DNA of 36,810 nt from Planctomycetia bacterium (lineage in GTDB: Bacteria > Planctomycetota > Phycisphaerae > FEN-1346), in the NCBI GenBank assembly GCA_003170085.1, contig PMZT01000057.1:1-36810 (forward strand). The letters are read 5' to 3'. A program made the translations under genes and the position numbers. This document shows, in pieces, positions 6,574-35,787 of this stretch (positions are counted from its first letter, which is position 1; the number at the start of each line of letters is the position of its first letter). The notes beneath the pieces were generated by a model that saw only the letters and a program-made list of their open reading frames with translations, ran no database searches and was not told the DNA's origin.

Positions 6574-6590
6574 GCTCGGAGCCCCGGGCC

Positions 6591-6757
6591 AGTACGACAG
6601 CGCAACTTGCGACTTTGCGCGGTGGGTCTCCCGACCCACCGCGCAAGAATGCCGCATGTTCGCGGAGCAATCGTCAGCCGGCCCGCCACGGCGGGTCTTC
6701 GACGCGGCGGGTCGGGAGACCCGCCGCGCAAAACCTAAGAAGCCGTGCTGTCGTACT
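6591..6757. repeat. Copy A of a MITE/REP-like element: 18-bp TIRs and two GC-rich hairpins
   Basis: Left TIR 6591-6608 AGTACGACAGCGCAACTT; right TIR 6740-6757, reverse complement AGTACGACAGCACGGCTT. Hairpin 1: 6615-6628 / 6633-6646 (14-bp perfect). Hairpin 2: 6703-6713 / 6718-6728 (11-bp perfect). Confidence 0.85.
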
Positions 6758-7625
6758 AGAGCAGGCCGTATTCCTTCATTGCCCGTTGAAGCGTGTCGGC
6801 GCTGGCGGGCGCGAGATCCGTCATCGGCAGACGTTTCTCGTCCGATTCCACCAGGCCCATCCACTTCATGGCCGTCTTGACGGGAATGGGGTTGGTCTCG
6901 ACGAACATCGCGCGGCAGAGCGGGTACAGCTTGCGGTGGACCGCCTGGGCCTCCGCCAGCCGCCCGGCCAGCATGGCATCGGTCAGGCGGCGCACGTCCT
7001 TCGGCACGACGTTTGCCACGACGCTGATCACGCCGCGCGCGCCAAGGGCCATCAGCGGCAGCGTCAGGCTGTCATCGCCCGACAGGACCGTGATGGAGCA
7101 CCGCGCGAGGATCTCGCTCGTCTGGTCCATCGAGCCGGTGGCCTCCTTGACCGCGACGACCTGCGGCAGCCGGGCCAGGCGCGCGATCGTCTCGGGCGTC
7201 ATGTTGACGACGCACCGCGGCGGAATGTTGTAGAGGATCATGGGCAGGTCCACCGCCTCGGCGATCGCGGCGAAGTGCCGGTACAGCCCTTCCTGCGTGG
7301 GCTTGTTGTAGTACGGGGAGACCTGGAGCGTCGCGTTGGCGCCCACGTCCTTGGAGAACTTCGTCAGTTCGATGGCCTCGGCGGTGGCGTTCGCGCCGGC
7401 GCCGGCGATGACCGGAACCCGGCCCGCGGCGCGCTTCACGACCACCTTGATGATCTTCTCGTGCTCTTCGACGTCAACGGTCGGGCTTTCGCCGGTCGTT
7501 CCCACGGGCACCAGGGCCTGCGTGCCCTGCTCGACGTGCCAGTCCACCAGCCGCTCGATGCCGGCGTAATCCACCTGGCCATTCTTGAACGGCGTAACGA
7601 GGGCTACCATGCTTCCGGAAAACAT
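6756..7625 (-). CDS. dapA: 4-hydroxy-tetrahydrodipicolinate synthase
   Basis: GSMVALVTPFKNGQVDYAGIERLVDWHVEQGTQALVPVGTTGESPTV; YYNKPTQEGLYRHF; LYNIPPR. Confidence 0.95.
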   Translation of the reverse strand: MFSGSMVALVTPFKNGQVDYAGIERLVDWHVEQGTQALVPVGTTGESPTVDVEEHEKIIKVVVKRAAGRVPVIAGAGANATAEAIELTKFSKDVGANATLQVSPYYNKPTQEGLYRHFAAIAEAVDLPMILYNIPPRCVVNMTPETIARLARLPQVVAVKEATGSMDQTSEILARCSITVLSGDDSLTLPLMALGARGVISVVANVVPKDVRRLTDAMLAGRLAEAQAVHRKLYPLCRAMFVETNPIPVKTAMKWMGLVESDEKRLPMTDLAPASADTLQRAMKEYGLL

Positions 7626-15181: not shown

Positions 15182-15198
15182 CGGCGGCGCGTCGGTCG

Positions 15199-15226
15199 GC
15201 GCGGCAGGTGCGCAGACCCGCCGCGC
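15199..15226. repeat. Fragment E of the repeat family (second hairpin only, one arm mismatch)
   Basis: GCGCGGCAGGT-GCGCAG-ACCCGCCGCGC followed by AAACTGCTGTTG; compare copy B GCGCGGCGGGT-GCGGAG-ACCCGCCGCGC followed by AAAGTAGTGTTG. Confidence 0.55.
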
Positions 15227-15259
15227 AAACTGCTGTTGCGGGAGTGGGCGGTATATCGC

Positions 15260-21657: not shown

Positions 21658-22134
21658 ATGCGTCACATAATCAGCACCATCGTCGAGAACAAGCCCGGCG
21701 TTCTGGCCCACATTGCGGGGCTGTTTGCCGGGCGGGGCTTCAATATCGATTCGCTGGCGGTCGGCGAGACCGAGGACCCCGCGCGCAGCCGCATGACGGT
21801 CGTCGTCCGCGGCGATGACTCCGTGCTCGAGCAGGTGCGCAAGCAACTCGGTAAGATCATCGACGTGATCAAGGTCACCGATTTCTCGGACGTCGAGTTT
21901 GTTGAACGCGACCTGGCGCTGGTGAAGGTGGCGGTCAAGCCCGAGAGGCGGCGCGAGATCTTCGAGTTGTGCGAGGTGTTCCGTGGCAAGGTCGTTGACA
22001 TCGGGGCCAAGCAGATCACGATCGAGATCTCCGGTCCCGAGAAGAAGGTCGAGGCGTTTATCGAACTTCTGAAGCCGTACGGCATCCGCGAGGTCGTGCG
22101 CACCGGGCGCATCGCCATTGCGCGGGGCGATTAA
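21658..22134 (+). CDS. ilvN: Acetolactate synthase small subunit
   Basis: MRHIISTIVENKPGVLAHIAGLFAGRGFNIDSLAVGETED ACT domain; second ATG fits the AAAGGA SD better than 21649. Confidence 0.95.
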   Translation: MRHIISTIVENKPGVLAHIAGLFAGRGFNIDSLAVGETEDPARSRMTVVVRGDDSVLEQVRKQLGKIIDVIKVTDFSDVEFVERDLALVKVAVKPERRREIFELCEVFRGKVVDIGAKQITIEISGPEKKVEAFIELLKPYGIREVVRTGRIAIARGD

Positions 22135-22267
22135 TACTACAATGCCACTTTAGCTTTTGCGCGGTGGGTCTCCGTACCCACCGCGCATGAAATGGCATTC
22201 ATGGTTACTTCAAGGGCAACGGCGCGGCGGGTGCGGAGACCCGCCGCGCAAAGTAGTGTTGACTATT
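22133..22267. repeat. Copy B of the repeat family between ilvN and ilvC
   Basis: Left TIR 22133-22150 AATACTACAATGCCACTT; right end 22250-22267 (reverse complement AATAGTCAACACTACTTT); hairpins 22158-22169/22176-22187 (12-bp) and 22222-22232/22239-22249 (11-bp). Confidence 0.85.
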
Positions 22268-23349: not shown

Positions 23350-23430
23350 AATTCACGCGTGCCCGTAGCCCTATGCGCGGCGGGTGCGGAGACCCGCCGC
23401 GCAGAACCTTGAGAGTTGCGCTGTCGAATT
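23350..23430. repeat. Copy C of the repeat family between convergent ilvC and STAS gene
   Basis: Perfect 12-bp hairpin 23374-23385/23392-23403 (TGCGCGGCGGGT-GCGGAG-ACCCGCCGCGCA); right TIR 23413-23430 (reverse complement AATTCGACAGCGCAACTC); left end AATTCACGCGTGCCC degraded. Confidence 0.75.
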
Positions 23431-23767
23431 ACGCGCGGCCGCCTTGCATTCGCGCCAGGGCCTCGGCCACGCTGGGGGTGAACTCGAAAAGCGAGTCCAG
23501 GCCGGTGGCCAGAAATACGCCCCAGACCTTGTTCTTGGGCGTGCAGAGCACCAGGCGGCGGCCGCCTTCGATCATGCGTTTGCGCAGCCTGAGCAGCTTC
23601 GAAAGGCCGCTCGACGCGAGCAGGTCCAGCCCCGAGAGGTCCACCACGATGTCGCAGCAACAGGCGCTCTGGAGCCGCCCGAAGACTTCGTTCAGGTCTT
23701 CCGAAAGCTGCGGGTCGTCGGCCAGTTGAACGACCAGCGTCTCGTCATTCCACAGTTGGACCGTCAT
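23429..23767 (-). CDS. STAS domain protein (anti-sigma factor antagonist-like)
   Basis: 112 aa; DIVVDLSGLDLLASSGLSKLLRLRKRMIEGGRRLVLCTPKNKVWGVFLATGLDSLFEFTPSVAEAL. Confidence 0.85.
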   Translation of the reverse strand: MTVQLWNDETLVVQLADDPQLSEDLNEVFGRLQSACCCDIVVDLSGLDLLASSGLSKLLRLRKRMIEGGRRLVLCTPKNKVWGVFLATGLDSLFEFTPSVAEALARMQGGRA

Positions 23768-24761: not shown

Positions 24762-24910
24762 GGGGATAATTCTAAACCGCGCGGCCGTTGTCCACAAGGG
24801 CAAGGTGGCAAGGTTGTCGCGATACGCCGTTACGCTGCGTGTGGCCGTCTCACGAAGGCTTGCTCGAATCGAGTTTCTTGGTATTCTTATGCGGACGGCG
24901 GGTGCCGCTT

Positions 24911-25003
24911 AGTACCACAACGCCACTTGGCCTTTGCGCGGTCGAATACACGGTCTGCGCGGCGGGTGCGGAGACCCGCCGCGCAAAGTGGCGCTATAGT
25001 ATT
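24911..25003. repeat. Copy D of the repeat family upstream of tRNA-Leu
   Basis: Left TIR 24911-24928 AGTACCACAACGCCACTT; right TIR 24986-25003, reverse complement AATACTATAGCGCCACTT; 12-bp hairpin 24956-24967/24974-24985; first hairpin reduced to one arm TTTGCGCGGT. Confidence 0.85.
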
Positions 25004-25085
25004 AGTCGGGCACCCATAAGGCCGAAATGTTAGGGTGGCGTTCGGCTCGTGGGTTGGCCGATCTACCCACCGGAATGATCAGGTC

Positions 25086-25172
25086 GCGGGAGTGGCGGAA
25101 CTGGCAGACGCGCAAGGCTTAGGACCTTGTGCCCGTAAGGGCCTGGGGGTTCGAGTCCCCCCTCCCGCACCA
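25086..25172 (+). tRNA. tRNA-Leu (anticodon UAG), CCA encoded
   Basis: Acceptor GCGGGAG/CTCCCGC, anticodon arm CAAGG-CTTAGGA-CCTTG, long variable arm TGCCCGTAAGGGC, T arm GGGGGTTCGAGTCCCCC, ACCA end. Confidence 0.95.
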
Positions 25173-35711: not shown

Positions 35712-35757
35712 GATCCATCCCCTTGTCAGACAGAACGAACTCCGCGGCGGCACCCGC

Positions 35758-35787
35758 CCCGCCACGGCGGGTCTTCGACGCGGCGGG
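35758..35787. repeat. Fragment F of the repeat family
   Basis: 30-bp exact match CCCGCCACGGCGGGTCTTCGACGCGGCGGG to copy A (6682-6711). Confidence 0.65.

What the first reader, a model, noticed from the sequence alone, without database searches (positions are those of the whole stretch)
6752..6760. Element end supplies the dapA stop codon; the same junction occurs at ilvN (22132-22134) and the STAS gene (23429-23431)
Seen directly: in all three genes whose 3' end touches an element, the stop codon is a flanking T plus the first two TIR bases: dapA T|AG-TACGACAGCG, ilvN T|AA-TACTACAATG, STAS T|AA-TTCGACAGCG. Copy D also begins T|AG and its other end T|AA. Inference: the family either targets T-ended stop-codon contexts or carries an end that regenerates a stop, allowing insertion directly at gene ends without lengthening the protein. 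Three cases only.
Basis: partly seen in the sequence, partly recalled or inferred. Interest (0 to 1): 0.75.

Follow-up and report, generated by a model that had tools for sequence, protein, structure and literature searches.

The report
Mini-transposons inserted at gene stop codons
A common family of short non-coding jumping elements in this planctomycete-like genome inserts at a 4-letter site (roughly YTAR) that includes the TAA and TAG stop codons, so many copies sit directly behind a gene's own stop codon without changing the protein.

Summary
The stop codons of dapA, ilvN and the STAS gene directly abut the inverted repeat of a short element. Across the genome, 43 of 245 sampled element ends (one counted twice, so 42) abut a predicted stop codon at distance exactly 0. 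No other distance has more than four.

The inverted repeat starts at TAC/CAC, not AG/AA. The bases outside it are a 4-bp target duplication, consensus YTAR (25 of 72 paired copies perfect), repeated in a sister genus (17 of 48). The stop codon is therefore the host's own, inside the target site. Orthologues without the element at that site end at the same residue.

A 1538-bp element in the same genome has matching ends and an IS701-family transposase (311 bits, cut-off 150). The small elements are best read as MITEs moved by such an IS701 element.

Stop-codon placement follows mostly from target availability plus selection. Compared with YTAR sites within 100 bp downstream, stop sites show no significant excess (odds ratio 1.2, p = 0.69); compared with all intergenic sites the excess is about threefold, consistent with loss of insertions upstream of genes. 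No evidence that the element makes stop codons.

The parts
6593..6755 (.). Copy A, 163-bp MITE between dapA and the next gene on the same strand; inverted repeats TACGACAGCGCAACTT / AAGCCGTGCTGTCGTA
   Evidence: folds almost end to end into a hairpin, -110 kcal/mol
6756..6759 (-). Target duplication CTAG on the dapA side, containing the dapA stop TAG (6756-6758); far copy is CCAG at 6589-6592 (3 of 4 match)
22135..22266 (.). Copy B, about 132 bp, between ilvN and ilvC; right end decayed and placed by eye
   Evidence: left end TACTACAATGCCACTT
22131..22134 (+). Target site TTAA containing the ilvN stop TAA (22132-22134)
   Evidence: element-free orthologue ends ...RTGRVAIARGE TAA
23355..23428 (.). 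Copy C, about 74 bp, between ilvC and the STAS gene; right repeat TTCGACAGCGCAACTC intact, left end decayed and placed by eye
23429..23432 (-). Target site GTAA containing the STAS-gene stop TAA (23429-23431)
   Evidence: element-free orthologue ends ...LQGGRA TGA
24913..25001 (.). Copy D, 89 bp, intergenic, perfect TTAG duplication on both sides (24909-24912 and 25002-25005); joined flanks form a small hairpin GGGTGCC..GGCACCC
15197..15230 (.). Isolated internal palindrome of the family with no recognisable repeat ends; degraded copy or separate repeat

Best explanation
The elements are MITEs (short non-coding transposons) moved in trans by an IS701-family transposase. Insertion duplicates a 4-bp target with consensus YTAR (more loosely NTAR/YTAN). 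Because YTAR contains TAA or TAG, one class of target is 'last base of the final sense codon + stop codon'. Insertion there leaves gene-N-TAR intact, then places the inverted repeat (YACKACARCGC...), the element, and a second copy of the 4 bp. The protein does not change. In this GC-rich genome YTAR is scarce inside coding sequence, so the usable sites are concentrated in intergenic DNA and at stop codons. Selection removes insertions in genes and probably in upstream regions, leaving about a third of surviving copies directly behind a stop. Shown: target duplication, repeat sequence, an IS701 element with the same kind of ends, native stop codons in orthologues, target availability. Inferred: that this IS701 transposase (or a close relative) moved the MITEs, and that selection explains the excess over all intergenic sites.
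For: Perfect 4-bp direct duplication in 25 of 72 paired copies, none of 5 or more; 17 of 48 in sister genus G003, with 17 direct versus 1 inverted among non-palindromic cases. The two 4-mers agree about equally at all four positions (49, 53, 54, 55 of 72), so all four bases are duplicated. Bases outside the repeat: mostly T at -3, A at -2, purine at -1, pyrimidine at -4. Eight G000 copies with a perfect duplication lie exactly at a stop codon, so the pre-insertion site already held the stop. L254 (contig C182) holds a 1538-bp element with ends CACTACAACGCTAC, flanks TTAG/TTAA, and a 496-aa ORF that matches NF033540 IS701 transposase at 311 bits (cut-off 150) and DDE_5 PF13546. Its ends fit the published IS701 end consensus ---YACT-Y--YR, a family with 4-bp repeats (PMC2266710). 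YTAR sites in 400 kb from the interiors of 20 long contigs: 189 in 356 kb coding, 192 in 44 kb intergenic, 37 of 305 stops. Stop versus YTAR within 4-100 bp downstream: odds ratio 1.2, p = 0.69; stop versus all intergenic: odds ratio 3.2, p = 4e-5.
Against: Copies B and C have only one well-preserved end, and their far 4-mers do not match the stop-side 4-mers; A matches 3 of 4. At stops, RTAR sites (20-24) are used more than the YTAR preference of intergenic copies predicts; this may be later drift at the codon's third base, or a looser true target (G003 often uses GTAG/CTAC and ATAG/CTAT). Only one complete IS701 copy was found, and its ends (CACTACAACGCTAC) match the TACTACAA type better than the TACGACAGCGC type. 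No close (same-species) empty site was available.
Confidence: 0.92

Rival explanations
1. One reading: the element's outer two bases (AG/AA) complete a stop codon with a target T, so insertion creates a stop at any in-frame T.
For: Junction letters read T|AR in all three genes.
Against: AR, together with YT, is duplicated on the far side as a direct repeat. Orthologues end at the same residue without the element. The IS701 element of this genome and the published IS701 motif both have the conserved end at YACT.
Confidence: 0.03
2. Active homing to stop codons or gene 3' ends, beyond what the 4-bp target gives (for example through terminator hairpins or transcription-linked DNA structure).
For: About threefold excess over all intergenic YTAR sites. 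A few copies split palindromic, terminator-like flanks: 5 of 70 versus 0.9 expected, largest of 300 shuffles 4.
Against: No significant excess relative to sites 4-100 bp downstream of stops (odds ratio 1.2-1.4, p = 0.69 and 0.14). In G003 the palindrome signal lies within the shuffles (3 observed, 0.7 expected, largest 4).
Confidence: 0.1
3. IS630/Tc1-type MITE with a TA duplication and a repeat that starts with a purine.
For: TA is the most conserved part of the junction; IS630-type transposases exist in the genome.
Against: All four positions are duplicated with similar fidelity, and ATAG/ATAG, GTAG/GTAG, TTAC/TTAC and CTAA/CTAA occur; the element with matching ends carries an IS701 transposase.
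Confidence: 0.03

Closest known systems
IS701 family insertion sequences (De Palmenaer et al. 2008, PMC2266710)
   Same: 4-bp target duplication; end motif YACT-Y--YR; size 1400-1550 bp (here 1538); transposase matches NF033540
   Different: The window copies are short (51-345 bp family-wide), non-coding, often hairpin-like. The paper's text gives no YTAR/stop-codon target, and its end consensus shows three unspecified positions before YACT. Other IS701 members duplicate 4-9 bp without consensus (PMC8024623)
IS870 of Agrobacterium (Fournier et al. 1993; seen only as a cited title in PMC6471742)
   Same: Target CTAG and a stop codon meet at the insertion junction
   Different: According to that title, in IS870 the target supplies the stop of the element's own ORF; here the host gene keeps its own stop
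Bacterial MITEs with TA targets (RUP of Streptococcus pneumoniae, Correia elements of Neisseria; from general knowledge, not tested)
   Same: Short, repeated, intergenic, moved in trans
   Different: Those use TA targets and IS630-type transposases; here 4 bp and IS701

Membership tests
MITE | Short, non-coding, terminal inverted repeats, many copies | tested here: met
   51-345 bp paired copies; 412 repeat matches versus 86 control matches
MITE | Target-site duplication | tested here: met
   4 bp, 25 of 72 perfect, 17 of 48 in G003
MITE | Ends shared with a transposase-bearing element | tested here: met
   L254 element, CACTACAACGCTAC ends
IS701 (L254 element) | IS701 transposase | tested here: met
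   NF033540, 311 bits, cut-off 150
IS701 (L254 element) | 4-bp direct repeat | tested here: inconclusive
   Flanks TTAG/TTAA, 3 of 4 bases; the MITEs themselves show 4 bp
IS701 (L254 element) | End motif ---YACT-Y--YR | tested here: met
   YACTACAACG compared by eye with the table in PMC2266710
IS701-mobilised MITE | Transposase acts on MITE ends | not testable with these tools
   Needs a transposition or binding assay
IS630/Tc1 MITE | 2-bp TA duplication only | tested here: not met
   All four positions duplicated

The most novel reading that the evidence does not exclude
The lineage has evolved a target specificity that coincides with 'codon + stop' and thereby a built-in safe site: a DNA transposon that preferentially lands behind host stop codons, beyond what base composition and selection explain.
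Probability: 0.1. Interest if true: 0.55.

Novelty: new member of a known kind. Interest (0 to 1): 0.3.

Why it matters
It shows a simple route by which a transposon with a 4-bp target can be harmless: if the target contains TAA/TAG and is rare inside GC-rich genes, many insertions land directly behind an intact stop codon. It also links an abundant MITE family to IS701, where none of the papers found here describes one, and it warns that junction letters can be misread as element sequence when they are target duplication.

Tried and rejected
Element-supplied stop: rejected by the 4-bp duplication and by orthologues. TA-only (IS630) duplication: rejected. Terminal-hairpin targeting: weak signal, 5 of 70 versus 0.9 in G000, inside the shuffle range in G003. 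Intrinsic terminator function of copy A: no terminator-like site found. Known RNA family in the elements: none in Rfam (only a tRNA at 25086-25169). Other DDE transposases as partner: no matching pair of ends found around L250-L253; IS630-type and Y1-type genes were located but their ends were not examined. Papers on IS701 MITEs: none found.

Full report
What is there. The three junctions are as described. dapA, ilvN and the STAS gene each end in TAG or TAA, and the next base is the first base of the inverted repeat of a short element. The host is a 4.47-Mb draft genome in 313 contigs. Many of the nearest named records by DapA are Planctomycetota MAGs at 55-60% identity, so it is a deep lineage, probably Planctomycetota.

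The family. Searching the genome gave 412 matches to RTACKACARCGCMACTT at up to 3 mismatches against 86 for the reversed pattern. I fetched stretches around the listed copies (L001-L189). 245 distinct ends were collected and 72 paired copies of 51-345 bp. Internally many carry GC-rich palindromes of the type GCGCGGYGGGTCTCC..ACCCRCCGCGC; 11 of 12 such palindromes in the window and 400 kb lie within 200 bp of a loosely matched repeat end. Copy A folds almost end to end.

Where the element ends. Outside the TAC the bases read YTAR. In 25 of 72 paired copies the four bases on the left equal the four on the right exactly, as direct repeats; no copy has a perfect repeat of 5 or more. Cases such as ATAG/ATAG, GTAG/GTAG, TTAC/TTAC and CTAA/CTAA show that this is a duplication and not an extended inverted repeat. 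The sister genus G003, with a younger expansion of the same repeat, repeats this: 17 of 48 perfect, 17 direct against 1 inverted. In the window, D is TTAG/TTAG (perfect), A is CTAG/CCAG (3 of 4), and B and C have decayed far ends.

Is the stop the host's own? Yes. Eight G000 copies with perfect duplications sit exactly on a stop, so the target contained it. Orthologues agree: IlvN in G004 ends RTGRVAIARGE TAA, DapA in G001 ends YGLL TAG, STAS in G004 ends LQGGRA TGA, none with an element at that place. In G003 a related element lies 15 bp behind the dapA stop, after GTAG, apparently a separate insertion.

How strong is the stop association? 43 of 245 ends (one duplicated record) have a predicted stop at distance 0; other distances have at most 4. 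Gene calls come from a simple codon-usage caller trained on the window. For ends with at most 2 mismatches, 37 are at stops and 157 are other intergenic ends, which corresponds to roughly 37 against 60 copies (an estimate, since each intergenic copy has two ends). G003: 13 of 48 copies.

Is that more than the target predicts? In 400 kb taken from the interiors of long contigs, YTAR occurs 189 times in 356 kb coding, 192 times in 44 kb intergenic, and at 37 of 305 stops. Against all intergenic YTAR the stop share is about threefold in excess (odds ratio 3.2, p = 4e-5). Against YTAR 4-100 bp downstream of stops it is not (16:20 observed, 38:57 available, odds ratio 1.2, p = 0.69); with all NTAR/YTAN sites it is 37:46 against 155:276 (odds ratio 1.43, p = 0.14). 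I read this as target availability plus loss of insertions upstream of genes. Caveats: the availability sample comes from long contigs, which are poor in repeats; stop-side sites keep TAR by selection while other duplications decay; and RTAR alone is over-represented at stops (20 of 37) relative to downstream sites (9 of 46).

The moving enzyme. Of five PF01609 hits in the genome, one, in L254, is framed by CACTACAACGCTAC ends 1538 bp apart with flanks TTAG/TTAA. Its 496-aa ORF is an IS701 transposase by NCBIfam (311 bits, cut-off 150) and DDE_5 by Pfam. IS701 elements have 4-bp repeats and the end motif YACT-Y--YR (PMC2266710), which fits YACTACAACG. The transposase's own stop codon lies inside the repeat. 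Fragments of related transposases occur in G005 and G002.

Known parallels. IS870 is cited as needing CTAG to form the stop of its own ORF (title cited in PMC6471742; the paper itself is not held). The present case is the mirror image: the host stop is kept. I found no paper describing IS701 MITEs or stop-codon insertion of this kind, within the limits of that library.

Verdict. Real, recurrent, and explained by a 4-bp target that contains the stop codon. The family is a new MITE family of a known kind.

Noticed in passing
L254:1055-2592 (G000:C182): Complete IS701-family element whose transposase stop codon TAG lies inside its own terminal repeat (GCGTTGTAGTG).
   Followed up: partly
G003 (sister genus), e.g. 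L324-L383: Younger expansion of the same MITE: 187 repeat matches at up to 2 mismatches versus 10 control, many copies of exactly 131 bp; targets there lean to GTAG/CTAC and ATAG/CTAT.
   Followed up: partly
L029 1413-1581 and L037 1369-1511: Copies splitting palindromic flanks (GGCGTCTTTTTTAG / CTAAAAAAGACGCCCC; GCGCCTTTCTTAG / CTAAGAAAGACGC), which look like insertions into hairpin tips.
   Followed up: partly
window 24893-25025: Copy D sits in the loop of a small hairpin GGGTGCC..GGCACCC when the flanks are joined, upstream of a tRNA gene (25086-25169).
   Followed up: partly
L257-L265: Nine Y1_Tnp (REP-associated type) transposase matches in the genome; whether they act on free GCGCGGYGGGT palindromes (such as window 15197-15230) was not tested.
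   Followed up: no
window 35748-35787: 40-bp stretch 93% identical to part of copy A (6672-6711) with no recognisable element ends.
   Followed up: no
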